From the IMG/VR virus record IMGVR_UViG_3300046512_000280, positions 1 through 27,312 of that record: 27,312 nt of DNA, one strand, 5' to 3'. The notes under the pieces were generated by a model. The model was not told where the DNA came from and ran no database searches. It saw only the letters and a list, made by a program, of their open reading frames with translations. Shown piece after piece: positions 1,315-18,049 of this stretch; positions within the stretch are counted from its first letter, which is position 1; every line of letters begins with the position of its first letter. The translations under genes were made by a program, and so were the position numbers. This DNA comes from a virus.

Positions 1315-3015
1315 GTGACGGTGCTTTCGCATGCTCAAAACTCAATCTCATTACCAGAAGAAAGACCAGTAACACTGGCACGAAAGCGGGAAATAGGTGC
1401 GTTCTACACTCCACTTTCTGTGACCAAAGTTTTATGCGACTGGGCAATAAGGTCTCCTGCGGACGTTTTGTTAGAACCCAGTTTTGGTGGTTGCAATTTC
1501 CTCGAAGCATCAGTAAGTAGAATACAAGAACTTGGCTTTAACACTGCCAACAACGTGTATGGTTGCGATATAGATCCCGCGGCCTTTGAAATGCTTTCCG
1601 ACAAAAATATTAAACTGCAACCTGATAACTTCAAACTTAAAAATTTTTTATTGATTCGTCCGAATGAAATATCCGGCGGAAGAGTCGACGCTGTCATTGG
1701 CAACCCTCCATATATCCGATATAGCAAGCTTGACGAAGAACAACAATCCGCAATCCATACTTGGGAAAGTGAATACCAACTGAGACTCAATCGCCGCGCG
1801 AGTCTTTGGACATACTTTAGCTACCACGCCCTACATTTCCTGAAAGATGGTGGACGTATAGCATGGGTGTTGCCAGTAAGCTTTATGACCGCGCAATATG
1901 CTTCGGGCCTTAGAGAACTATTTTTCAAAAGCTTTAAGAAACTGGCTTTCTTCACACTAACTGAGCGAATTTTCTTACTGGAAGGCACGGAAGAAAGGGC
2001 GTTAATCGTATTAGGAGATGAGTTCGGGTCCTATTCAGAGGATGCACACATAACCTCTAATTATGTAGACAACCTACCCGAGCTTTACACCGAAATCAAA
2101 GACTGGTCAAACAACAGCAATGAAACTCCGCCAAGCAATAGCAAATCTAATTTCGGGATAGTTACTGCAACAGTCGAATCAACAGTATCTAGATTAAAAA
2201 CAGACCCATTAGTAAAGGAATTGGGAGAACTCGCTGACATTGGCATTGGTGTAGTGACGGGAAATGCAAAGTATTTTATCCGCCCCTACGCTCAGTGGCA
2301 TGCTGATGGAATTGGTCTTTCACACCTCAGTTACATCATTCCTAAAAGCAGGTTTATTTCCGGGCTGGAGGTGTCAAAATCCGACAAGAACGCCCATACC
2401 GATTTGGGTATTTCATGCTTTGCACTAGACGCCCCGGAAAACACTAAATCCAAAGCCGTTTTACGATACTTGTCAAATTATGGCACTTCGAACATAAAAA
2501 ACAACGCTACATTCGCAAAGCGTGACTGCTGGTACAAGTATCTAGATGGAAAAATTCCAGATGCCTTTTTTGTATTCATGACTCACAACGGACCTCGAGT
2601 GATACTCAACAGTGTGGGCGCCAATACCACCAATGGTTTTTATCGTGTAAATTTCAAACCCAACACCGACATCGCCTTCAAGTTGATTATTATTTCGCTA
2701 CAAACTACATTTACTCAACTAGAGGCAGAAAAACTAGGAAGAGCTCGGGGTTCAGGCGCTCTCAAATTAGAACCCTGTGATGCCAAATTGCTTCCGTTAT
2801 ATCTGCCATCGAAATCCGAATTAGAGATAGAATCTACGTTTTCGCTTGTCGACGCACTTACCCGACAAGGAAGAGAAGACTGCGCTCGCGCCGCCGCAGA
2901 TAGCTTTATATTTTCGGACGCGCCAATTTTTCGTAAAGAGCTCGACCAATTAGCACAAAGTTTAATAACCGCACGAAAGCGAAGAGTTAGAAATAAGGAA
3001 GTAAGTGATGAGTGA
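1315..3015 (+). CDS. N6-adenine DNA methyltransferase, Eco57I/TaqI-like
   Basis: 566 residues from GTG 1315. Motif X is GAFYTP (28-33), the SAM-binding motif is EPSFGGCNF (54-62) and the catalytic motif IV is NPPY (130-133), followed by IRY. This order (X-I-IV) marks a gamma-class N6-adenine methyltransferase. The C-terminal half, about residues 280-560, is long and lacks the methylase motifs, as expected for a target-recognition domain of the TaqI/Eco57I type. I see no nuclease motif at the N-terminus, so it is not an obvious fused type IIG restriction enzyme. Its last 8 bp overlap the next gene. It probably marks host DNA so the partner proteins can tell self from non-self, or acts as the DNA-modifying effector. 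Confidence 0.85.
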   Translation: MTVLSHAQNSISLPEERPVTLARKREIGAFYTPLSVTKVLCDWAIRSPADVLLEPSFGGCNFLEASVSRIQELGFNTANNVYGCDIDPAAFEMLSDKNIKLQPDNFKLKNFLLIRPNEISGGRVDAVIGNPPYIRYSKLDEEQQSAIHTWESEYQLRLNRRASLWTYFSYHALHFLKDGGRIAWVLPVSFMTAQYASGLRELFFKSFKKLAFFTLTERIFLLEGTEERALIVLGDEFGSYSEDAHITSNYVDNLPELYTEIKDWSNNSNETPPSNSKSNFGIVTATVESTVSRLKTDPLVKELGELADIGIGVVTGNAKYFIRPYAQWHADGIGLSHLSYIIPKSRFISGLEVSKSDKNAHTDLGISCFALDAPENTKSKAVLRYLSNYGTSNIKNNATFAKRDCWYKYLDGKIPDAFFVFMTHNGPRVILNSVGANTTNGFYRVNFKPNTDIAFKLIIISLQTTFTQLEAEKLGRARGSGALKLEPCDAKLLPLYLPSKSELEIESTFSLVDALTRQGREDCARAAADSFIFSDAPIFRKELDQLAQSLITARKRRVRNKEVSDE

Positions 3016-5446
3016 AAATAAAAAGGAAGATGACCCAAAAACCGCTCTGACAGAAGCGCTATCTGCAGAGAATTTGGACTATGGAAATATTCTTAAACTA
3101 GCTCACGCTTTGTCTCAAGAGGACCCAGATACAATTCGATTTTCCGTTGATGCCAGTCATATCTCCAGGCTTGGACTGGAGCTAGTATCCAAACAAGAAA
3201 CGGCAATCTCGGAACTTATTAAAAATGCCTACGACGCTGACACCCCTCTTGTAGAGGTGGACTTTTATAACACTGACACCGTAGGTGGCGTGCTTGAAAT
3301 AGTTGACTCTGGGACAGGAATGTCGCGCGACCAATTACTTAATGGCTTCATGCGAATATCTACAGCGGCAAAAGTAGCACAACCACTTTCTCCGAAATAT
3401 GGTAGACAACGCGCAGGCAGAAAAGGGATCGGAAGATTTGCAGCTCAACGGCTTGGTCGCAAGTTAACGATTGTAACTCAACAGGAAGGTGCCAGCTTTT
3501 CTCTAAAGCTATCTATTGATTGGGATATGTTCCTGACTGGCCTTGACCTGCACATGATAGCTAGTCAAATAATAGTAACTCCTTCACGGGGTATGAGTGG
3601 TACCGTTATTAGGATCGAGGAACTACGTGACGCTTGGTCGGAAGCACAAATTAGGCGTGCGTATAGATTTGTATCCGATTTACTACAGCCATTCAAACTA
3701 TCCTCGCCAGAAACACGCCCCAATTCCGATCTATTCTCGGAAACTTGCTACGAACCAGACCCTGGGTTTGATGTGAACTTTTACAGGGCCACTGACGGTC
3801 AGAGAGTAATAATCGCAAGTCATGAGCATAATATACTATCAACTGCATCCGGCCACATCACCGCAAGAGTTGAAAATGGCGGCCAGGCGTTCATAAGCCT
3901 CACATCTGAAAGATATCCGGTTAACCTTGATAATGTACCCTTAAAATTTGATCCGCGGTTACGAGCAAAGACAAAGGAGAAAGTTTCTAATTATAATCTT
4001 TTGGATGGCGTTCAACTGTCTGCACACTATTTCATCGCCGACGAGTTGCCACAGGGCACTAGGGGAATGGTGAGGGATGTTTTGAATCGTACGGGAGGAA
4101 TTCGTGTTTACCGAAACGGCTTCCGAGTTCTTCCGTACGGAGAAAGTTTTGATGATTGGCTGAGCCTGCAGCGGTCGAGTGCATTACGTGAAGTCCTACC
4201 ACCGCATCACAACACTAACTTTTTAGGCTTCGTTGAAATCATCGATGTCGACGGCAATCAGTTTCAAGAAACTGCTAGCAGGGAAGGCCTCATAGAGAAC
4301 GAGGCATTCTACCAACTTCAAGACTTCGCATATCGGGCAATCATTGCGGCCGTTATGGAAATCGCTAGAGCAAGGGGTAAAAAGCTGCATGCGAGCGATA
4401 AATCAACCTATGCCCCTCGCGAGCCTAAGGCCAACCCGGAGAGCGTTAAGGACCAAGCCGCTGAAGTAGCCGAAAGAATCAGAGCAATCGCAGACTCCGC
4501 CGCGCCTCCTCCTCACACAAATCCGGTCACACCCGACAATACAGATATTCCGTTTGGTTTAGACGGACTAGAGCCGCCCGAAAATTCTGGAGATCTCGGC
4601 CAGCTCGCAGATACTGGAGGGCTAGCCGAGGCAGCAAAAGAGCTAGCTAATCTCGCTGACGAAATCGAACAAATAGGTATAGCGTCGGAGTCAGCACTCG
4701 AAGAAGTTGGTATGCTTAGAGTGCTCGCCAGCTTAGGCTTGACAATAGGTGAGTTCACGCACGAAGTACGACATGCTCTTGCTGCACTGGGAGCAATCGT
4801 TGCAGACCTACATACAAGCCACGCAAATTCAAAAATAGCTGAAGAGCTTACCGAGCACGTACTTCTTCTTAGAAGCTATATGCATTACTTTGATGATGCT
4901 GTAATGCAGAATGCACATCGAAAACTCGAAGTATATGAACTTCGAGACATCATCAACGAATTCATTAAAGTTGTACGACCCACATTTACAAGACAGAATG
5001 TCAAAGTCGAGACATCCTTTACTGGTTACGACCTTTTTACAAAGCCCATGCATAAATCCGAATGGGCTTCAACGCTTTTAAACCTATTCACAAATTCATT
5101 AAAAGCAATACACCGAGCCCAGGTTAAAGGTTCCATATTAATTTCATGCTGCTTAGTTGATGGCGAACTTCAAATAGACTTCTCAGATAATGGCGATGGT
5201 ATCCCTATAGAAAATCGCGATAAAATTTTTGATGCTTTTTTCACAACTAGCGCACCACCCTCGACATCAGAAACACACGAAGACCAACTTGTGGGAACGG
5301 GACTTGGGCTTAAGATCGTGAGGGATATAATAGAGTCCGCTGGCGGCTCGATTGAAGCCATCGAACCTGTTGCGGGCTATTCCACATGTATACGCTTGAC
5401 GGTTCCTAGAGCGCGCGAGGATCAGATTGATGCCGACCAATATTAA
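3008..5446 (+). CDS. Dual GHKL ATPase: MORC/Hsp90-like module plus histidine-kinase-like module
   Basis: 812 residues; ATG 3008 is preferred over GTG 3005 because AAGGAA sits 7 nt upstream. The N-terminal ATPase shows the Bergerat motifs: N-box SELIKNAYDAD (E69, N73), DSGTG (100-104) and GRKGIGRF (138-144 region). A middle domain contains GGIRVYRNGFRV followed by PYG, typical of MORC/MutL-like ATP-binding proteins. After a linker rich in Pro, Ala and Glu, residues around 580-800 look like a histidine kinase: GEFTHEVRHAL with H585 as possible phospho-acceptor, N-box with N696, DNGDG at about 727, and GTGLGLK at about 763. No membrane segment, so it is cytosolic. Known: GHKL ATPases of this kind occur beside restriction-modification genes. 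Inferred: a sensor-switch that talks to the receiver-like protein encoded next. Confidence 0.85.
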   Translation: MSENKKEDDPKTALTEALSAENLDYGNILKLAHALSQEDPDTIRFSVDASHISRLGLELVSKQETAISELIKNAYDADTPLVEVDFYNTDTVGGVLEIVDSGTGMSRDQLLNGFMRISTAAKVAQPLSPKYGRQRAGRKGIGRFAAQRLGRKLTIVTQQEGASFSLKLSIDWDMFLTGLDLHMIASQIIVTPSRGMSGTVIRIEELRDAWSEAQIRRAYRFVSDLLQPFKLSSPETRPNSDLFSETCYEPDPGFDVNFYRATDGQRVIIASHEHNILSTASGHITARVENGGQAFISLTSERYPVNLDNVPLKFDPRLRAKTKEKVSNYNLLDGVQLSAHYFIADELPQGTRGMVRDVLNRTGGIRVYRNGFRVLPYGESFDDWLSLQRSSALREVLPPHHNTNFLGFVEIIDVDGNQFQETASREGLIENEAFYQLQDFAYRAIIAAVMEIARARGKKLHASDKSTYAPREPKANPESVKDQAAEVAERIRAIADSAAPPPHTNPVTPDNTDIPFGLDGLEPPENSGDLGQLADTGGLAEAAKELANLADEIEQIGIASESALEEVGMLRVLASLGLTIGEFTHEVRHALAALGAIVADLHTSHANSKIAEELTEHVLLLRSYMHYFDDAVMQNAHRKLEVYELRDIINEFIKVVRPTFTRQNVKVETSFTGYDLFTKPMHKSEWASTLLNLFTNSLKAIHRAQVKGSILISCCLVDGELQIDFSDNGDGIPIENRDKIFDAFFTTSAPPSTSETHEDQLVGTGLGLKIVRDIIESAGGSIEAIEPVAGYSTCIRLTVPRAREDQIDADQY

Positions 5447-6560
5447 GTACCTATGTATTGATGACCAACAAGACTCCACTATCGATCCACTGTTATCCAG
5501 ATTAGAAAATGATGGATTAATCAGTTTTGATAGATGGACTCCAAAAAGCTTGGAGGGCCAACTTCCCGCAATTCAGCAGTTTGTTGCTCAGCAATCCGGC
5601 CCATTTGGATTGCTTCTCGATTTAAGATTAGATGTTGACGCAGATGCAGATGGCAATCGCGTATCTTATCGGGGCCCAACTTTGGCACAAGAGTTACGTA
5701 CGCGAATGGCTGAAGGAACAATTACACCATTCCCAATAGCCCTTTGGTCAGTTAACACTAAATTCCAACAATCGTATTTTGGAGACGAATCATCTCACGA
5801 CCTTTTCGATGATATTTTCGGAAAAGATCGTGAAGTTGCTGACCAACCAAAAGTCGTAGCAGAAAAGCTTGCATCTCTTGCATACGGCTACCATAAACTG
5901 CGCAGTGTTACCAAAACAAATCTAGTGAGCACTTTGGGCTTAAGTGAAGAGGTAAACTCTCCACTATATTCACAATTTTTAGACGAATATTCTCAAATTT
6001 CCATTGAGAGCACGACACACGAACTTGCGCACTTTCTTCTCAACGATCTCATTAGGGTGGAAGGCCTCCTTGTCACAGAGTCGATGATCGCAGCGCGCCT
6101 CGGCGTGAATATAACCAACTCGAAAGACTCTTGGGAAACAATTAAGGAAAAGCTACAAGTCGCGAAGTATACAGGTCCATTTTGCGAGGCTTGGCCGCGC
6201 TTTTGGTGGTTCAGGGTTGAAGATTGGTGGGCCACACTAGAGTCAAATATCTCCGAATTAGGGTTACTGGATAGCCATGAACGCGTCACCAAACTAAATG
6301 AAATATTTTCTACAAAACTTGTTGCCAGTGAACCTATACTACCCAAATATAGCGCTTGCTTTTCTACACTATGTGTAGGTACCTCCTTACCACTGGATCC
6401 TATAGATGGTTTGCGAGTTGTACGCAGGTCCTCACGTACATGGCAAGATACACTTTATGTATCTGCTCATGCGGCGCTTGAGCGGATTAACAAGGATTGT
6501 TGGCGCTTAGATCCCCTAGAAAGGGATCGGTTAGCCTGGATCAAGGAAGAGGGAGCATAA
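5430..6560 (+). CDS. Receiver-like protein with a long unknown C-terminal domain
   Basis: 376 residues from ATG 5430 (GAGGA 8 nt upstream), overlapping the ATPase gene by 17 bp. The N-terminus reads YLCIDDQQDS with the acidic pair D11-D12, and GLLLDLRLD with D64 where a response regulator carries its phosphorylated aspartate. The insert DVDADADGN after D64 and the short first helix make it an atypical receiver. Residues about 130-376 are largely helical and Trp-rich, with no DNA-binding motif I recognise. Gene order right after a histidine-kinase-like ATPase supports a phosphorelay pair, with the C-terminal part acting as output or effector. Confidence 0.7.
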   Translation: MPTNIKYLCIDDQQDSTIDPLLSRLENDGLISFDRWTPKSLEGQLPAIQQFVAQQSGPFGLLLDLRLDVDADADGNRVSYRGPTLAQELRTRMAEGTITPFPIALWSVNTKFQQSYFGDESSHDLFDDIFGKDREVADQPKVVAEKLASLAYGYHKLRSVTKTNLVSTLGLSEEVNSPLYSQFLDEYSQISIESTTHELAHFLLNDLIRVEGLLVTESMIAARLGVNITNSKDSWETIKEKLQVAKYTGPFCEAWPRFWWFRVEDWWATLESNISELGLLDSHERVTKLNEIFSTKLVASEPILPKYSACFSTLCVGTSLPLDPIDGLRVVRRSSRTWQDTLYVSAHAALERINKDCWRLDPLERDRLAWIKEEGA

Positions 6561-6562
6561 TT

Positions 6563-7288
6563 ATGGCTAAAAAACCGTCCCCTGAACTTATCCGAAAAAA
6601 AATGTCCTCTGACCTCATCGAACTATCACAGGTTTTGAAGTCAGGCATGTATGGAACAATCGTAAACCCAGATATTCTTAAGTCATCCGCAAATACGATT
6701 ACACGAACAACTAAAGGTACTACATGGGCATACAAAATACCTGGACTTCAACTCCGAGTAAATGTGCCACAAAGCACGCAACCGGTTGATTGCCCTGGTC
6801 CGTTGACCATTGATGTCGACCTTTCTGTTGCTGGCGACTTTAATAATGATGAAGCGGACCAACTCACTCACTTAGTTTTAGATATAGTCATTAAATCATC
6901 TTGCGGCACACATTTATGCGCATGGCACTTTGACCGGCATATCGAGGGAGGGAATCCCTCGCTTGAGGCACATCCACTGTATCACTTCCAACACGGAGGC
7001 AACGCCATGCTTCCTTATGCTGGCCTTCTTGGGAAAAGCTTATTACTTCCTGCTCCGCGCTTAGCTTTTCCACCTATGGATGCGGCTCTTGCAATCGACT
7101 TTGTGCTGTCAAATTTTTCAGGCGAATGCTGGAGTTTTATGCGCAAGCAGCCCTCCTATTTAAGACTTATTAAAGAATCTCAGAAATTACTATGGCAACC
7201 ATATTTGAAGCGTCTTTCAAATTGGTGGGAAACTCCAATGAAAGAAGAAAAAATAAAAACCATTTCGCTTATGCCTCACCTTGCTTAG
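6563..7288 (+). CDS. Last gene of the putative defence operon, unknown family
   Basis: 241 residues; ATG 6563 is chosen because GAGGGA lies just upstream and the previous stop ends 2 bp before. Features: a basic N-terminus, beta-rich centre, then CAWHFDRHIEGG and HPLYHFQHGG (from H137), a cluster of His and acidic residues that could bind metal or form an active site, followed by LLLPAPRLAFPPMDAALAI. No membrane segment. I do not recognise the family. Its tight linkage to the three preceding genes suggests it is part of the same system, perhaps the effector. The His cluster could also be structural. Confidence 0.65.
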   Translation: MAKKPSPELIRKKMSSDLIELSQVLKSGMYGTIVNPDILKSSANTITRTTKGTTWAYKIPGLQLRVNVPQSTQPVDCPGPLTIDVDLSVAGDFNNDEADQLTHLVLDIVIKSSCGTHLCAWHFDRHIEGGNPSLEAHPLYHFQHGGNAMLPYAGLLGKSLLLPAPRLAFPPMDAALAIDFVLSNFSGECWSFMRKQPSYLRLIKESQKLLWQPYLKRLSNWWETPMKEEKIKTISLMPHLA

Positions 7289-7855: not shown

Positions 7856-8650
7856 TTAGAACAATCCTCCTAACGCTGCCGGCTCCCAATTCATGATCAC
7901 CAGTTCGCCACTCACCTCGGCTTTGCCCTGCCGCTGATTGGTATTGCAATAGCGGATGTCCAGCGTTTCAAAGTGCAAGCCCTCGAATACTCGCCGAATG
8001 TCCGGGTGATCGTTGATGCTCACCATCACCCTGCCCTTGCAACGCCGCATGAAGTCGGCCATCCGCTCGTAGTTCTCGAACGGAAAGTCCACACCATAGC
8101 CGGCGGTCTGCCAGTAAGGCGGGTCCATGTAGTGGAAGGTATGCGACCGATCGTAGCGCTCGGCACATTCGAGCCATGGCAGGTTCTCGACATAGGTGCC
8201 GGACAAACGCTGCCAGGCAGCCGAAAGGTTTTCCTCGATCCGCAGCAGGTTGATGGCCGGGCCGGTGGTCGCGGTACCGAAGGTCTGCCCTGTGATCTTG
8301 CCGGCAAAGGCATGGTGCTGCAGGTAGAAAAATCGCGCGGCGCGCTGGATGTCGGTAAGGGTTTCGGGGCGGGTCATCTTCTGCCACTCGAACACCTGGC
8401 GGGAGCTCAGCGCCCATTTGAATTGGCGCACGAACTCTTCGAGGTGGTTCTGCACAACGCGGTACAGCGTTACCAAGTCGCCGTTGATGTCGTTGAGGAC
8501 TTCAACGGGTGCAGCCTGGGGCCGCATGAAGTAGAGCGCGGCACCGCCGGCAAAGACTTCGACGTAGCATTCGTGAGGCGGAAAAAGCGGGATGAGGCGG
8601 TCGGCCAGGCGGCGTTTGCCGCCCATCCAAGGGATGATGGGTGTAGACAT
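7856..8650 (-). CDS. dam: DNA adenine methylase, D12 class
   Basis: 264 residues from ATG 8650; an upstream TTG would leave no room for a ribosome site. N-terminal IPWMGGKRRL and VEVFAGGAAL are the SAM-binding parts, NDINGDLVTLYRV follows, and DPPYW is the catalytic motif IV; IND with HPDIRRVF closes the fold. This is the Dam/DpnM (D12) family, alpha-class N6-adenine methylation, commonly phage-encoded and used to evade host restriction. A LexA box lies 18 bp upstream, so transcription is probably induced by DNA damage. No restriction endonuclease neighbour is present, which marks it as an orphan methylase. Confidence 0.9.
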   Translation of the reverse strand: MSTPIIPWMGGKRRLADRLIPLFPPHECYVEVFAGGAALYFMRPQAAPVEVLNDINGDLVTLYRVVQNHLEEFVRQFKWALSSRQVFEWQKMTRPETLTDIQRAARFFYLQHHAFAGKITGQTFGTATTGPAINLLRIEENLSAAWQRLSGTYVENLPWLECAERYDRSHTFHYMDPPYWQTAGYGVDFPFENYERMADFMRRCKGRVMVSINDHPDIRRVFEGLHFETLDIRYCNTNQRQGKAEVSGELVIMNWEPAALGGLF

Positions 8651-8667
8651 AAATAGCAAGACCTTTA

Positions 8668-10356: not shown

Positions 10357-12018
10357 TTATCCCTGGTAGTCGTTCGGCGAAATATCGACTTGGCAATCGT
10401 CCATATTCAGTGGCCCCGCCGCGTTGTGTCGGATGCGCAATCGCCAGTACTGCCCCGGGGATCCGGACACCTTGAACACGCATTTTATACGGTCCTTATC
10501 CGGGTTGACGCCCTTCGGCTCACCTTCACCGTCGACGTAGGCGCCACCTTCGTTGACCAGTTCAAGGGCGATATACTTCGCCGCGCCATCCACTGCCATG
10601 ACCACGGACACGCTGATAGTCATTTTGGTGCAGCCGTTCGGCATAACCAGTCGCTCGGGGTTGGTCAGCGAGAACGCCCCCACGTTGTCGTCTACGATCG
10701 TAGCGAATGAAACAATGTTAGTTACCACTGCCAGACCTGTAGCCATAGACTGGTTGGTCTTGCGGATCTTGGTCGAACGCCCGCGCAAGGAATACGGCTG
10801 TAGCGATGCCGGAATGATCTGGCGTTGCGGCGAGTAGGCGTTCAGGTCGTGGTTCACGTTGTCGATGAGTATCTTGAAGTATTCGTAGGCCTTTCTCCCG
10901 GTCGCTGCCTCAAACGCCGCCATGTAAGCCGGAATGTTGGTAGACGACAGGTTGGCGATGATTGGCCCCGACACTGGACCGGTGCAGTCCCGCATCACAA
11001 AGCGGTTGGGGATATGGCCTTGGATGGCCAGCACACACGAATCCGGTAGACCATCAGGCCCGGAGAACAGGAAGCACTGGAGCAGTTGGACTTCCGTACT
11101 GTTCCAAGGGAACTGGGTATTCGGTGCGCCGATATGAGCAACGATTTGCATGCCGCCGCTTTCGCCGCCGAAACGGGTGTGCGAGGCGGTGAAGCTGCCG
11201 TAGTTATCAACCCAACGGACATTGGGCACCCGGTCAACGCCTACGATGCCCATGTTGGGGATCATGAACGTATCTTTGATGTGCAAGCGCGTCAGAGCGT
11301 TAGGGTCGCTGGGGGACGTGCCCTTGTTGATGATAGCCGCCGTCGAAGGCGCCATGTTGGACTTGTCCTGCTGAATCCAACTCTGGCTGATGGTCATGTG
11401 GTCGCAAGCGTTGTTGATCGCTTGCTTGCACTTGAGAATGCGCACCTTGTGAAGGTTGCACTCGGTAGACAGGTGGGACCATGCATTGCCCAAGGCATCT
11501 GTGCCCGTGGCGAAGGTGTTAATCGCGAAACCGTCGGCCAGCATGATGTCGCAATTTTTGATCTCGACCATGGACGAGTTAATGTTGTTATTGCTGAAGT
11601 TGATCAGGTTGCGCCCGCCGGCCAGGTTGAAGCCCTGGATCTGCCACAGATAGGCCACGCCGCTGAAGATGTCCTTGGTCACGCCGCCGTTCTGCGCGAT
11701 CAGGCATTCTTCGCCTTCGAGGTTCGCATAAGACGGAAGCACCAGCGTGTCACTGATGGCGTAGTCACCAGACCTAACAATTACCCGCGGCGTAGTGCCG
11801 GAATAACTGGCAGACAGGCCGCCAATGGAGATCATGCGATAAGTCGTTTTGTTGCCGATATCGCTAAGCATGTTCTGGAACTGCACGGTGTCGTCCAGAC
11901 CGCCAGCCACGTAGTCGCCCAGTTCAATTTCGCGCTGAACCTTGCTAGCGAGACTGCGCACAACTGTGTTGACGCCCGGTGCCTTGATCGAAACATTCTC
12001 AGCGCCTAATGCACTCAT
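10357..12018 (-). CDS. Phage tailspike with right-handed beta-helix
   Basis: 553 residues. An N-terminal part of about 60 residues (MSALGAENVSIKAPGVNTVV onward) looks like a particle-attachment region; residues about 70-390 have the short repeated strand pattern (RVIVRSGDYAISDTLVLPSY, then further strand repeats) of pectate-lyase-like beta-helix tailspikes, and the C-terminus is a beta-rich domain. Such proteins bind and often cut surface polysaccharide of the host. Its ATG overlaps the stop of the truncated terminase (TGATG). No other tail gene remains nearby, so the particle it once decorated is missing from this element. Confidence 0.75.
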   Translation of the reverse strand: MSALGAENVSIKAPGVNTVVRSLASKVQREIELGDYVAGGLDDTVQFQNMLSDIGNKTTYRMISIGGLSASYSGTTPRVIVRSGDYAISDTLVLPSYANLEGEECLIAQNGGVTKDIFSGVAYLWQIQGFNLAGGRNLINFSNNNINSSMVEIKNCDIMLADGFAINTFATGTDALGNAWSHLSTECNLHKVRILKCKQAINNACDHMTISQSWIQQDKSNMAPSTAAIINKGTSPSDPNALTRLHIKDTFMIPNMGIVGVDRVPNVRWVDNYGSFTASHTRFGGESGGMQIVAHIGAPNTQFPWNSTEVQLLQCFLFSGPDGLPDSCVLAIQGHIPNRFVMRDCTGPVSGPIIANLSSTNIPAYMAAFEAATGRKAYEYFKILIDNVNHDLNAYSPQRQIIPASLQPYSLRGRSTKIRKTNQSMATGLAVVTNIVSFATIVDDNVGAFSLTNPERLVMPNGCTKMTISVSVVMAVDGAAKYIALELVNEGGAYVDGEGEPKGVNPDKDRIKCVFKVSGSPGQYWRLRIRHNAAGPLNMDDCQVDISPNDYQG

Positions 12019-13106
12019 CAGAACTTGGCGAAGTGAGATGTCAAGCTGGTGCCCGGCAGGCAGGCGTAGAGCTCGTTCAGCTCAATGAAGCCGGCACGAC
12101 CGGCAAAGGGTTTCGTCGGTACCCAGCCGCAATTCGGATCACCTGCATCAATCGCGTTGAACACCGTGTTGCGGATGTTCTCCTTGCGCTGGTAGTCGTC
12201 CCAGATTTCCCCGCAGTGCGGGCAGGCATAGCCCGCTGTCGCCGGATCCGCACGCCCGTAGATTTCATGGGGCTGGCCTTCCTCCTCGATGTCGAGCCAC
12301 TTGATGTGCGCGAAGTCCAGCACATGAGCCTGACCGCAGGTGTGGCAGAAGATCGGCAACACCCGGCAATCGGTCTGGGCCAAGCGCGCCTCAGTCTTGC
12401 TCGCGCCCTTGATCGCAGGCGTACCACCGACCAGCATTTTCGAGCCGGGGTAACGTTTGCCACGTTCCTCGAGCAGGGCGATCGCATCGCCCTGCCCCTT
12501 CACGTCGTCGCTGGTATCGTCCGGTTCCTCGACCACCGACAGACCCACCGATGACGTCGACTTCACGTTACCGGGGGAGTTCGAGGCGACCAGCTTGAGG
12601 AAGCCGCCCGGGAAACTCTTATGGTCCCAGCGATTGCCGGAGGACCGGCTGGTGTCCACCGGCATCAACCGGTTGACCTCACTGTTCGCCATCACGCCGT
12701 GCTTGAGCTTCTCGTCATGGAAGTTCTTGCCGTCCTTTTCCTTGGCAAACAGGATCATGATCGGTCGGGGCAGGAACTGGACAAACTTGAACAGGTACCC
12801 GATCAGGAACCAGGTCCAGCCGATCTGCGCGGCTTTCATCAGGTCCACTTCGCTGACGCGCGGATCATCCAGCGCCGCGGCAACGCCGAGAAAGTACGGC
12901 GTGTAGTGGAAGTCGTACAGGCCGTGCAGCACACCACTTTCAGCGGGCAAATAAAACTCAGTGCTCAGGTACTCCGCTGTTGGCACATCACGCGGCGGGT
13001 TGAACTTCCCCGCCGCTGCCAACAAGCTCCGCGCCAAGTTTTCGCGCGTAGCCTGCAATTCGCTCGGTTGTAGGTCCAGCAACTTTGGCCACCACAGATC
13101 GATCAA
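12018..13106 (-). CDS. Terminase large subunit, truncated, fused to a foreign tail
   Basis: At most 362 residues from TTG 13106; the true start may be further in, since this frame overlaps the small subunit by 119 bp. GpA-type ATPase features are seen: MKAAQIGWTW (adapted Walker A), GLSVVEEPDD (Walker B) and LVGGTPAIKG (coupling), then two Cys pairs (CHTCG, CPHCG). GpA proteins are usually 550-700 residues; the C-terminal nuclease half is missing. After NELYA the sequence switches to CLPGTSLTSHFAKF and stops, overlapping the tailspike ATG. This looks like an in-frame deletion joining the terminase to the last codons of the gene that once preceded the tailspike. It could still bind ATP but should not cut DNA. 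Confidence 0.8.
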   Translation of the reverse strand: MIDLWWPKLLDLQPSELQATRENLARSLLAAAGKFNPPRDVPTAEYLSTEFYLPAESGVLHGLYDFHYTPYFLGVAAALDDPRVSEVDLMKAAQIGWTWFLIGYLFKFVQFLPRPIMILFAKEKDGKNFHDEKLKHGVMANSEVNRLMPVDTSRSSGNRWDHKSFPGGFLKLVASNSPGNVKSTSSVGLSVVEEPDDTSDDVKGQGDAIALLEERGKRYPGSKMLVGGTPAIKGASKTEARLAQTDCRVLPIFCHTCGQAHVLDFAHIKWLDIEEEGQPHEIYGRADPATAGYACPHCGEIWDDYQRKENIRNTVFNAIDAGDPNCGWVPTKPFAGRAGFIELNELYACLPGTSLTSHFAKF

Positions 13107-14759: not shown

Positions 14760-14785
14760 AAAAACCCGGCGCAATGGCCGGGTTT
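14760..14785 (-). terminator. Terminator upstream of the late genes (possible tR')
   Basis: AAACCCGGC/GCCGGGTTT hairpin with a run of five T on the minus strand, 20 bp before the holin start. In lambda-like phages a terminator between the late promoter and the first late gene is what Q overcomes; a Q-like gene lies just upstream. Confidence 0.75.
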
Positions 14786-14836
14786 GGTGTGTGGTGCCTG
14801 CCGCTCTCTGCGGTCGCACCTATCGAAGATGGGTAC

Positions 14837-14865
14837 TTTTTACAGGTGGATTCTCATGGCAGCAA
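14837..14865 (-). promoter_or_regulatory. Possible late promoter PR'
   Basis: On the minus strand TTGCTG (14865-14860) and TAAAAA (14842-14837) are spaced by 17 bp, about 50 bp before the terminator. A fair but not strong sigma-70 match. Confidence 0.35.
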
Positions 14866-14955
14866 CCCCTCTTTAATGCCACCCGGTGAATGTCTGGGCT
14901 ACGCCTAGGCAATGTCGGTGAATATCTTTATTTCGGCTTTCAGCGCCTCTGGCGC

Positions 14956-15232
14956 TGTCCTACCTGTCCCACTATTCAGAATCGAAGTAGGACAGCTGAA
15001 GCCCTTTAAATTCGTGACTCTGCCCTACTGTCCTACCTTTTTTACCTTTCTCTCGTGTATAGAGAAAAAACTAAAAACACGCGTGCGCGCCATAGGCGCG
15101 AACACATGCCCACTACGCACATGTGTGCATGACGTGGGTGAAGGTAGGACGGTAGGACACCCCAGCAACGACGCGGCCTGCAACTGTCCTACTAACCTAA
15201 ATGGCAGTAGGACAAGGCCGGACAGTAGGACA
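14956..15232. repeat. GTAGGACA repeat array, candidate replication origin
   Basis: The octamer GTAGGACA, or its complement TGTCCTAC, occurs exactly at 14956, 14987, 15029, 15152, 15185, 15207 and 15225, with one-mismatch copies at 14965, 15021 and 15144. Copies form two clusters around an AT-rich stretch (15036-15080) that holds a TTTCTCT/AGAGAAA hairpin (15047-15067), the palindrome CGCGCCATAGGCGCG and further inverted repeats. Clustered short repeats flanking an easily melted segment, next to a primase-helicase gene, suggest iterons bound by the initiator. It also fills the 500-bp gap between holin and Q-like gene, where no gene is visible. Confidence 0.65.
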
Positions 15233-15257: not shown

Positions 15258-15623
15258 TCATGCAGCCTTCCCCATCAGCAAGCCTTCGATGTTCACGTGT
15301 GCATCATGCAATCGACGGTAGTAGGTCGGCGCGCTACACCCACAGTGCAACATCTTCTGCGACAGAAAGCTTTCATGGTTGCAGTAGTGCTCCCACACCA
15401 CCAGGGCCAACTCAGGTGCAAGGTGCTTATTGACGATCAGCTCAATATCCGCCGACTCATCCAACAACACTCGGCTGCCCCGGGTCCCCCGTATCAGCTC
15501 GCCCTTGCACTCCATCAACATGGCGATCATGTTTCCGCCACTCGCCCCGCCATAGCCTTCAGTCAACGGCGAATGCAGATCCTGCGCCCACAGCTTGAGC
15601 ATCTCATCGATTCGCTTAATCAA
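15258..15623 (-). CDS. Q-like late antiterminator
   Basis: 121 residues from a TTG start at 15623, chosen because GAGGAG lies 7 nt upstream and the previous gene ends there (8-bp overlap). The sequence KRIDEMLKLWAQDLHSP, followed by GGNMIAMLMECKGELIRG and CGCSAPTYYRRLHDAH near the end, resembles the short antitermination proteins of lambdoid Pseudomonas phages; the YYRRLHDAH end looks like a DNA-binding helix. Its place at the end of the early block, before the late terminator, matches lambda Q. It would let polymerase read through the terminator into holin and the genes behind it. Confidence 0.7.
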   Translation of the reverse strand: MIKRIDEMLKLWAQDLHSPLTEGYGGASGGNMIAMLMECKGELIRGTRGSRVLLDESADIELIVNKHLAPELALVVWEHYCNHESFLSQKMLHCGCSAPTYYRRLHDAHVNIEGLLMGKAA

Positions 15624-17832
15624 AGCAAGGCTCCTCGATCGGAGCCTGCTGCAAGGCAGTGTTACTCCCCCACGTAGCAGGCTTCTGATACGCCCACTGC
15701 CGCACACCACTTTTGGGCAATGCCGTCACACGCTTTTTGCGCCAACCCAGCCGATGCATGATCGCACCAACCCGCATCTGCTCCGGCTTGCCCCAATGGC
15801 CAACATCCAACTTGAGGGCCTGACTCAGAATCTCGTTGCCTGTCGTGGTTTCGCCAATCTGCGACTCCTCCAACCAATGCAGTATCGGCCCTTGCCACTC
15901 GTCTACCACAAAGCGCTCGTCCTGGGCCTCGGCAAACATCCACGTCTCATCCTTGGTCACCCACCAGATATCACCTGCTTCATAGCAAAACACCGCCTCG
16001 GCCCATAGCTGGTCGCGAATCTCGCGCAGTGCATCGAGGTCAACCTTGTTGCAGAACACCGGCCAATAACGCCGGTTGCCCGTGGCGTCCTTGAGGTATT
16101 CCTCCTGGTTGGTGGTGCCCACGAAAACACACTGGCGTGGCACGTCATTCGTTCTGCGGCCGTAGCTCTCGCGATAGGTATCGGTGGAGGCCGAAAAAAA
16201 CTGCTTGGCCTTGGTGCTCTCGGCCTTGTTGAAGCTGTCCAGTTCCCCCAACTCGACAATCCACTTGCCGCGAATCGCCTGAAAGCTGTCCTTGTCCCCA
16301 AGGGCAAACGGCGTGTCCATAAACCACTCGCCGCCAAGAATCCCCATCGCCGTGGACTTCCCTTCCCCCTGCCCGCCTTCGAGGATCATCACCGAGTCGG
16401 CCTTGCAGCCAGGGCGCATGACCCGAGCCACCGCAGAAATCGGCCAGCGCTTGCCGACCTTGGCCGAGTACTCACTGGCCTCAACACCGAGCACGTCGGT
16501 CAACCAGCTTTCCAGCCGAGGCACGCGGTCCCAATCCAGCTTCTCCAGATACTCACGCACCGGGTGAAAGGCATGATCATGCGCGACCACACTGACCGCC
16601 TCGATCACATGGGATGCCTTGACCCGCAGGTTGTACTGCTGCGCAAGCCACTTCATCACCCGCATATCATCGATGTCAGCCCAATCCCCTGCACCGCCGC
16701 CATATGGTGCGGCACGCAGCTTGATGATCTTGGAGCTGAACACGCTGTACCCGATCACCCCTGACCAACGCTCATCATTCCCCAGGATCAATTCGACATT
16801 CTGCATATGCGCAATCAGGGCACCGCTTTCACTGCGCGCCAGCATGTCCTTCCAACCGCCCGCAGCCGGTGGCTTGACCACCGCCAAAACCTGCCGACGC
16901 ACCGCTTCCAACCCCTCGGCAACATGCAGGTCGTTGAAGTCGGTCCACTTTTCTTCCCGCTCACCGGAGAAGATTGGCGCGACCACCTGGCCACCCACAA
17001 TCAACGCGGCGTTGTTCGCCTTCTCTTCACCGGGGTTCCAAGGCTCGCCATTCGGCCGCTTGGTCTTCCAGTCATCGTCGCGGCAAATAATAACTGGGCA
17101 GCCGGGAAACTCCTCGCGCATGGCCTTGGACACTGAGAGCAAGTTGCCCGCATCAAAGGCGATAGCCACCGCCATGGAGGTCGCCATGTGAAGGCTAGCG
17201 CCCGTGGCGTAACCCTCACAGATCAACACTGGTTCACCTGGCTCTGGATGTCCGCCGATCAAGTGAAAAGCACCTTCCTTCGACATGCCGGCAGGCCAAT
17301 AAGTCTTATCGCGACCTGTGTCCTCCTGCTTAACAGGGAAGATCACCTGTAGGCCAACGATCTGATGCCGCACGTTGCTCATTGGCACCAACACCGCGCC
17401 AGTGCGCGGTGCATAACGTACCTTGAACCCAACGATCTGCTTTCGATCAAGATAGGCGCTTTTGCCCTTCTCCGGCATGCGCTTGAACAAACCGGCCGCT
17501 CGGTTGGCCGCTCGCCGTGCCGCGTTGGCCGCCACTTCTGTGGCCTTACGCTTGGCGTCTTCCTGTCGGGCACGCATGACTTCGCGCTCTTCGGGACTCA
17601 TACGTCCGGCCTTCACTTTGATCTTTTGCGACTCGCCCGAACGCCAGTCACCGAAGCTACCAAAGATCAGCGTTCCATTCTTCTCGGTGCGATGCTCGTG
17701 GACGACGTACCAACCGTTTTTTTCCTTGCCCTTGTCCTGGGAGGTTTTACAACGGGTTAGTTTGCCGAATACCAACGGCTGCTCAGGCTCAAGTCCGTAG
17801 TCTGCGAATTGCCCTAGAACCTCATCGAGCAT
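15616..17832 (-). CDS. Primase-helicase: TOPRIM plus VapE-type ATPase
   Basis: 738 residues from ATG 17832 (GGGAGG 7 nt upstream). N-terminal half: a DUF-type region, then a TOPRIM domain with VLICEGYATG (Glu206) and ICRDDDW, as in P4-alpha-like primases. C-terminal half: a VapE/D5-like ATPase with GGQGEGKST (Walker A, K492), ELGELD (Walker B) and VGTTNQEEYL (sensor), ending with a winged-helix-like region. It should unwind and prime the element's DNA. It overlaps the genes before and after it, within the early operon, and lies next to the GTAGGACA array, which may be its origin. Confidence 0.88.
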   Translation of the reverse strand: MLDEVLGQFADYGLEPEQPLVFGKLTRCKTSQDKGKEKNGWYVVHEHRTEKNGTLIFGSFGDWRSGESQKIKVKAGRMSPEEREVMRARQEDAKRKATEVAANAARRAANRAAGLFKRMPEKGKSAYLDRKQIVGFKVRYAPRTGAVLVPMSNVRHQIVGLQVIFPVKQEDTGRDKTYWPAGMSKEGAFHLIGGHPEPGEPVLICEGYATGASLHMATSMAVAIAFDAGNLLSVSKAMREEFPGCPVIICRDDDWKTKRPNGEPWNPGEEKANNAALIVGGQVVAPIFSGEREEKWTDFNDLHVAEGLEAVRRQVLAVVKPPAAGGWKDMLARSESGALIAHMQNVELILGNDERWSGVIGYSVFSSKIIKLRAAPYGGGAGDWADIDDMRVMKWLAQQYNLRVKASHVIEAVSVVAHDHAFHPVREYLEKLDWDRVPRLESWLTDVLGVEASEYSAKVGKRWPISAVARVMRPGCKADSVMILEGGQGEGKSTAMGILGGEWFMDTPFALGDKDSFQAIRGKWIVELGELDSFNKAESTKAKQFFSASTDTYRESYGRRTNDVPRQCVFVGTTNQEEYLKDATGNRRYWPVFCNKVDLDALREIRDQLWAEAVFCYEAGDIWWVTKDETWMFAEAQDERFVVDEWQGPILHWLEESQIGETTTGNEILSQALKLDVGHWGKPEQMRVGAIMHRLGWRKKRVTALPKSGVRQWAYQKPATWGSNTALQQAPIEEPCFD

Positions 17833-18049
17833 GGCGGGCCTCCCGCGATTCAACAACGGACTGGCAAATTACACACAGTTCGCAACCCGACAGGGCAAGT
17901 CGGCGAGCCACTGGGATCGGATCGTCGCAACTTACGCAAAACAGGAAAGAATGCGCCGCCAATACAGGTTTGGCGGCGTTACGTGCAGCGAGGGCTTGAT
18001 CAAGTCGCTCCTGCATTAGGTCATTCGCGAAGTCGGCAAGATCAGCCAT
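17822..18049 (-). CDS. TraR/DksA-type zinc-finger protein
   Basis: 75 residues from the MADLADFAND start. A short helical N-terminus is followed by a C4 zinc finger (CVSC and CVIC, 15 residues apart), the DksA/TraR signature. Such small phage or plasmid versions bind RNA polymerase through the secondary channel and shift promoter choice without ppGpp. It overlaps the primase gene by 11 bp and the CII-like gene by 8 bp, so it is part of the early operon. Confidence 0.82.
   Translation of the reverse strand: MADLADFANDLMQERLDQALAARNAAKPVLAAHSFLFCVSCDDPIPVARRLALSGCELCVICQSVVESREARHAR

What the first reader, a model, noticed from the sequence alone, without database searches (positions are those of the whole stretch)
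14956..15232. Array of about ten GTAGGACA/TGTCCTAC motifs: likely origin of replication
Seven exact octamers in under 280 bp, where chance predicts about 0.01, in two clusters around an AT-rich and hairpin-rich centre, close to a TOPRIM/VapE primase-helicase. This parallels phage P4, where the alpha protein binds clustered repeats at its origin, but with a different motif. VapE-type elements with a defined iteron of this sequence are not known to me.
Basis: partly seen in the sequence, partly recalled or inferred. Interest (0 to 1): 0.76.

Follow-up and report, generated by a model that had tools for sequence, protein, structure and literature searches.

The report
Phage replication origin bound by primase
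This is very probably the DNA replication origin of a Pseudomonas temperate phage: about ten short repeats in two mirror-image clusters, which the phage's own primase-helicase appears to read through a DNA-binding domain at its end, since in hundreds of relatives the repeat sequence and two amino acids of that domain change together.

Summary
Seven exact GTAGGACA octamers lie at 14956-15232 and nowhere else in the window; three more sites have one mismatch. They form two mirror-image half-arrays, (- -)(+)(- -) and (+ +)(-)(+ +), around a 40-bp AT-rich stretch and a hairpin-rich centre. The array sits downstream of a TOPRIM/VapE primase-helicase, past a small PA0613-family gene.

All 80 loci that could be scored (76 cellular Pseudomonas loci, three phages, the window) carry an array at this place. 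The repeat core varies: GTAGGAC, GTGGGAC or ATGGGAC. It tracks two residues of the primase's predicted C-terminal winged helix. Residue 707 is Lys with A and Arg with G at repeat position 3, in 245 of 245 loci. Residue 694 is Ile with A and Met with G at position 1, in 243 of 245. The intervening gene tracks the repeat less well, so linkage alone is a poor explanation. An R-pyocin locus that has the neighbouring genes but no primase has no array.

Best reading: the phage origin, bound by the primase's C-terminal domain, as in SaPI/PICI-type initiators; a new member of a known kind. Binding and replication are inferred; only about four independent switches support each residue link.

The parts
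14956..15040 (.). half-array 1: sites at 14956(-), 14965(-, 1 mismatch), 14987(+), 15021(-, 1 mismatch), 15029(-)
   Evidence: layout (- -)(+)(- -) conserved in relatives
15041..15080 (.). AT-rich stretch (70% A+T), candidate melting region (DUE)
   Evidence: position conserved in alignment; function inferred by analogy with PICI origins (PMC6092414)
15081..15143 (.). G+C-rich, hairpin-prone centre between the half-arrays
15144..15232 (.). half-array 2: sites at 15144(+, 1 mismatch), 15152(+), 15185(-), 15207(+), 15217(+, degenerate), 15225(+); mirror image of half-array 1
   Evidence: (inverted repeats I1, I3, I4)
15616..17856 (-). TOPRIM/VapE primase-helicase, proposed initiator (746 aa)
   Evidence: PF05272, Toprim_3; phrog_2249 E=8e-226; PDB 7PDS PriRep1
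15685..15894 (-). codons 655-724: predicted C-terminal winged helix, proposed repeat-binding domain
   Evidence: AlphaFold2; similar to 7PDS C-terminal part, Z 6.6
15775..15777 (-). codon 694 (Met), in the predicted recognition helix; Met/Ile tracks repeat position 1 (G/A)
   Evidence: 243 of 245 loci
15736..15738 (-). codon 707 (Lys), first wing strand; Lys/Arg tracks repeat position 3 (A/G)
   Evidence: 245 of 245 loci
15258..15710 (-). PA0613-family gene between primase and array; tracks the repeat type less closely, so probably not the binder
   Evidence: NF051483 E=5e-57, phrog_4300

Best explanation
The array is the replication origin of a Pseudomonas temperate phage. The primase-helicase encoded just upstream binds the octamers through its C-terminal winged helix; residues 694 (recognition helix) and 707 (wing strand) read repeat positions 1 and 3. 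Each of the two mirror-image half-arrays seeds one helicase ring; the rings face each other across the AT-rich stretch, melt it, load themselves, prime with the TOPRIM domain and start two forks. Shown here: the array, its layout, its conservation and the residue-base co-variation. Inferred: physical binding, two opposed rings, melting, bidirectional replication.
For: Array at the same place in 80/80 scorable loci; heptamer density 6-28 per kb in the array against 0-0.5 per kb elsewhere in the locus. Residue 707 is the best of all 746 columns for repeat position 3 and residue 694 the best for position 1. On a tree without the C-terminal domain, 4 of 4 independent pairs for each residue agree. 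Repeat type (position 3) needs 3 changes on the C-terminal-domain tree, 12 on the primase N-terminal tree and 6 on the tree of the gene lying between. L062/L063, two prophages of one host: primase 99.6% identical in 401-640 but 83% in the C-terminal domain, with repeats switched. Pyocin locus without primase has no array. Marinobacter relative (47% identity) keeps a similar mirrored layout with a different repeat, GGGGTGACC. SaPI Rep binds iterons downstream of its gene with its C-terminal domain (PMC7581432); Gram-negative PICI origins have two iteron sets flanking an AT-rich region (PMC6092414).
Against: No experiment. The number of independent switches is small (about 4 per residue; sign test p=0.125 each). 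Array and C-terminal coding sequence are close, so linkage contributes. The code does not extend to distant relatives: the L393 group and L397 have Arg with GTAGGAC, and the Marinobacter protein has Lys with another repeat. Two Ile694 loci (L252, L254) have GTGGGAC. A few relatives have degenerate arrays (2-3 heptamers, e.g. L054, L059). The recognition domain rests on a predicted structure.
Confidence: 0.85

Rival explanations
1. The array is an operator or enhancer for a phage transcription regulator (PA0613-family protein, DksA-like protein, CII-like protein or repressor) controlling the late lysis genes.
For: It lies just upstream of the holin gene and beside a conserved late-control element and terminator; a PA0613-family gene is adjacent.
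Against: The PA0613-family gene tracks the repeat less well than the primase C-terminal domain although it lies closer to the array (6 against 3 changes). In the pattern-scan loci, most of them distant, the array follows the primase stop by a median of 48 bp. The R-pyocin locus keeps DksA, PA0613 and the late-control element but has no array. The CII-like, DksA-like and repressor proteins were not tested for co-variation.
Confidence: 0.07
2. The array is a packaging (pac/cos) or partition site rather than an origin.
For: Terminase genes lie in the same direction a few genes away (L083).
Against: Repeat type co-varies with the replication protein's DNA-binding domain, and of the arrays in other phages whose neighbours could be classified most lie beside an initiator helicase. 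Terminase was not tested for co-variation.
Confidence: 0.03
3. The residue-repeat association is only physical linkage: C-terminal coding sequence and array are inherited together, and another protein binds the array.
For: Most Lys/Arg switches look like recombined C-terminal domains (residues 10-640 94-97%, C-terminal 77-83% identical).
Against: The gene lying between fits the repeat type worse than the farther C-terminal domain does. Some position-1 pairs differ by only 3 residues in the C-terminal domain, including 694 (L319/L309). Residues 694 and 707 fall in the predicted recognition helix and wing.
Confidence: 0.1

Closest known systems
SaPI Rep-ori, including PriRep1 (PDB 7PDS, 'Similar to D. 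nodosus vapE')
   Same: Hexameric initiator helicase; C-terminal domain recognises iterons directly downstream of its gene (PMC7581432); 7PDS is the only sequence match in the PDB (E=2e-66) and the top fold match, covering the C-terminal domain too.
   Different: Here a full-size phage family of Pseudomonas, a TOPRIM (not AEP) primase fused to the helicase, a different repeat, and a small gene between primase and array.
Gram-negative PICI pri-rep-ori (e.g. EcCICFT073)
   Same: [quoted passage not shown] rep plus ori supports plasmid replication there (PMC6092414).
   Different: PICIs are satellites; relatives of this window are complete phages of about 39-42 kb. Repeat sequences not compared directly.
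SCCmec Cch2 / putative ori
   Same: Isolated C-terminal domain binds short repeats downstream of the helicase gene (PMC7581432).
   Different: Three AAGTG repeats, separate primase-polymerase.
Satellite phage P4 alpha protein and ori/crr (from memory)
   Same: Primase-helicase fusion that binds repeated short motifs at its origin.
   Different: P4 uses another motif and two separated cis regions (ori and crr); here there is one site only.

Membership tests
SaPI/PICI-type helicase-initiator with downstream iteron origin | VapE/D5-like AAA+ helicase domain with Walker A | tested here: met
   PF05272 E=2e-79; 7PDS match; motif GGQGEGKS in the sequence
SaPI/PICI-type helicase-initiator with downstream iteron origin | C-terminal winged-helix DNA-binding domain | tested here: met
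   by prediction only:
SaPI/PICI-type helicase-initiator with downstream iteron origin | short repeats just downstream of the initiator gene, in two sets flanking an AT-rich region | tested here: met
   one small gene lies between
SaPI/PICI-type helicase-initiator with downstream iteron origin | initiator binds the repeats and the pair supports autonomous replication | not testable with these tools
   only co-variation available
PICI (satellite element) | lacks its own virion/packaging genes, depends on a helper | tested here: not met
   window has a terminase ATPase gene; relatives are 39-42 kb phages, with terminase genes where shown
phage P4 alpha/ori | second separate cis region (crr) with the same repeats | tested here: inconclusive
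   the octamer occurs at one place only, but the window is a fragment, so a distant second site cannot be excluded
phage P4 alpha/ori | origin repeat of P4 type | not tested
   P4 sequence not compared

The most novel reading that the evidence does not exclude
Two residues (694 and 707) form a portable recognition code for origin repeats in this primase family, and phages change origin identity by swapping a module made of the C-terminal domain plus array, which would let related prophages in one cell replicate without cross-talk (as in the pair L062/L063 of one Pseudomonas host).
Probability: 0.35. Interest if true: 0.65.

Novelty: new member of a known kind. Interest (0 to 1): 0.52.

Why it matters
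It gives a family of Pseudomonas prophages (a near-full-length relative of the primase in about 15% of 399 genomes searched) a concrete origin and initiator. It also supplies natural variants in which the initiator's binding domain and the origin repeat have switched together. That makes origin specificity and compatibility between co-resident prophages directly testable with natural proteins and DNA.

Tried and rejected
PA0613-family protein as the repeat binder: its best columns are weak and lie mostly where its reading frame overlaps the primase gene, and its tree needs more repeat switches. Repeat position 8 (A/G): the G loci look like one clade and many columns track them equally, so uninformative. 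A structured RNA in the array: no Rfam match at gathering threshold; a weak match to the Pseudomonas sRNA P9 at 14761-14846 (16.4 bits against a cut-off of 43) was not supported in relatives or the pyocin locus. The DNA-pattern scans also return chance hits; only clusters of at least 4 sites were used. Literature searches for the repeat together with 'iteron', and for an origin in these Pseudomonas phages, found nothing relevant; the library is open-access only. GC-skew mapping of the origin was not done because gene orientation confounds it in phages. The AlphaFold2 model of the whole primase is of modest quality (mean pLDDT 67), so the C-terminal domain was also folded alone.

Full report
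THE OBSERVATION. In 100 dinucleotide shuffles no octamer of any sequence reached more than 3 copies in 277 bp; here there are 7. Adding three one-mismatch copies and one degenerate copy gives eleven sites. Their orientations are (- -)(+)(- -) in the first half and (+ +)(-)(+ [+] +) in the second: two mirror-image half-arrays. Between them lie a 40-bp AT-rich stretch (15041-15080, 70% A+T) and a G+C-rich, hairpin-prone segment (15081-15143).

SURROUNDINGS. The window is an IMG/VR virus record. On the minus strand the order is CII-like activator, DksA-like zinc-finger protein, TOPRIM/VapE primase (746 aa), PA0613-family protein, array, holin, tail-type protein, terminase. The same early-gene order occurs in Pseudomonas aeruginosa phages LPPA36, vB_Pae_U5 and Haddon, 39-42 kb.

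CONSERVATION. Eighty loci could be scored: the window, 76 cellular Pseudomonas loci from the genome scan and the three phages. All have a cluster of the heptamer [GA]T[AG]GGAC in the 360 bp after the PA0613-family gene, on average 6.4 sites (2 in the most degenerate), at 6-28 per kb against 0-0.5 per kb in the rest of the locus. The repeat core differs between lineages: GTAGGAC, GTGGGAC or ATGGGAC.

WHICH PROTEIN READS THE REPEAT. Comparing repeat type with every primase column gave a perfect match at residue 707 (Lys with A, Arg with G at repeat position 3; 74 of 74 loci with at least four sites). Residue 694 was Ile in the three ATGGGAC loci and Met otherwise. I fixed this as a rule and tested it on 177 distinct, previously unseen viral-contig loci, 171 with at least four sites: Lys707 gave GTAGGAC in 88 of 88, Met694+Arg707 gave GTGGGAC in 71 of 71, Ile694+Arg707 gave ATGGGAC in 10 of 12. 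Over all 245 loci the position-3 rule has no exception and the position-1 rule two. The fraction of A at position 3 within an array is 0.50-1.00 with Lys and 0.00-0.44 with Arg.

HOW INDEPENDENT IS THIS. Related phages are not independent data. On a tree of the primase without its C-terminal domain, the data contain only four independent position-3 pairs and four to five independent position-1 pairs; all four well-supported pairs agree for each, but each set alone cannot reach significance. Linkage was tested as an alternative. The PA0613-family gene lies between the primase C-terminal coding region and the array, so linkage alone predicts that it should fit the repeat type at least as well. 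It fits worse for position 3: the type needs 3 changes on the C-terminal-domain tree (residues 694 and 707 removed), 6 on the PA0613-family tree, 4 on residues 401-640 and 12 on residues 10-400; for the rarer position-1 change the trees hardly differ (4, 3, 3, 5). In two prophages of one host (L062, L063) the primases are 99.6% identical over 401-640 but 83% in the C-terminal domain, and their repeats differ: the domain and the array appear to have been exchanged together. In L319 and L309 the domains differ at three positions only, 694 among them, and the repeat differs at position 1.

STRUCTURE. AlphaFold2 predicts a winged helix for the C-terminal domain: helix, strand, helix, recognition helix (690-702), and two wing strands (706-709, 721-724), with moderate confidence. 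Residue 694 lies in the recognition helix and 707 in the first wing strand. The closest solved protein by sequence and fold is PriRep1 bound to DNA (7PDS); its C-terminal part matches the isolated domain with Z 6.6 over 89 residues, within the range of other winged helices.

A NATURAL CONTROL. An R-pyocin-type record from P. aeruginosa (L086) has the DksA-like gene, a PA0613-like gene, the holin and the late-control element GTAAAAAGTAGTCAT...GGTGCG, but no primase between them. Its interval contains one heptamer, which is chance level, and no array.

DISTANT RELATIVES. A Marinobacter phage relative (primase 47% identical) has, right after the primase gene, an array of another repeat, GGGGTGACC/GGTATGACC, in a similar mirrored arrangement. 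DNA-pattern scans of viral contigs found 125 loci with at least four sites: 97 have a VapE-type primase, with the array 8-449 bp (median 48) past its end, many only about 30-43% identical to the query proteins. Among the other 28, ten of those examined carry another initiator-type helicase: DUF927/Cch with its C-terminal HTH (L474, L486, L489, L495, L499, L503, L510, L530) or DUF5906 (L497, L527); two more have AAA_25 proteins, one with a TOPRIM match (L487, L491); the rest are truncated, unexamined or unresolved. Outside the Pseudomonas clade the two-residue rule fails in some families (L393 group, L397), so it is a clade-level code.

MECHANISM. By analogy with SaPI Rep, which binds iterons downstream of its gene through its C-terminal domain, and with Gram-negative PICI origins, which have two iteron sets flanking an AT-rich region (PMC7581432, PMC6092414), I propose that each half-array nucleates one helicase ring, that the rings face each other, open the AT-rich stretch and start two forks, primed by the TOPRIM domain. 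Binding, ring number and bidirectionality are inference.

VERDICT. It is a new member of a known kind. The part that a specialist may find new is the natural repeat-switching tied to two residues.

Noticed in passing
14762-14880 (minus strand): Strongly conserved late-control region before the holin: TGGCATTAAA..TTGCTGCCA, CTGTAAAAAGTA..CATCTTCGATAGGTGCG and a terminator AAACCCGGC..GCCGGGTTT; partly shared with the R-pyocin locus. Looks like a late promoter, leader and terminator, possibly controlled by the PA0613-family or a PrtN-type regulator.
   Followed up: partly
1315-7288 and 7856-8659: Restriction-modification-like genes: Eco57I-type methylase (566 aa), an 813-aa protein with two HATPase domains resembling a type II restriction enzyme model, two further unknown ORFs, and a separate type II methyltransferase.
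   Followed up: no
10357-13106 (minus strand): The terminase ORF (362 aa) matches only the ATPase domain; the next 553-aa ORF has no family match, and no capsid genes were recognised to the left. The prophage may be rearranged or defective here.
   Followed up: no
L390:5700-6026: Marinobacter phage relative has a mirrored array of a different 9-mer (GGGGTGACC) directly after its primase.
   Followed up: partly
L474, L486, L489, L495, L499, L503, L510, L530: GTGGGAC arrays beside DUF927/Cch-type helicases, a different initiator family using the same heptamer.
   Followed up: partly
L062 and L063: Two prophages of one Pseudomonas host with nearly identical primases but exchanged C-terminal domain and different repeats.
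   Followed up: yes
L252, L254: Only loci with Ile694 whose arrays are GTGGGAC; they carry Leu at 685 where the other Ile694 proteins shown have Tyr or Phe.
   Followed up: partly
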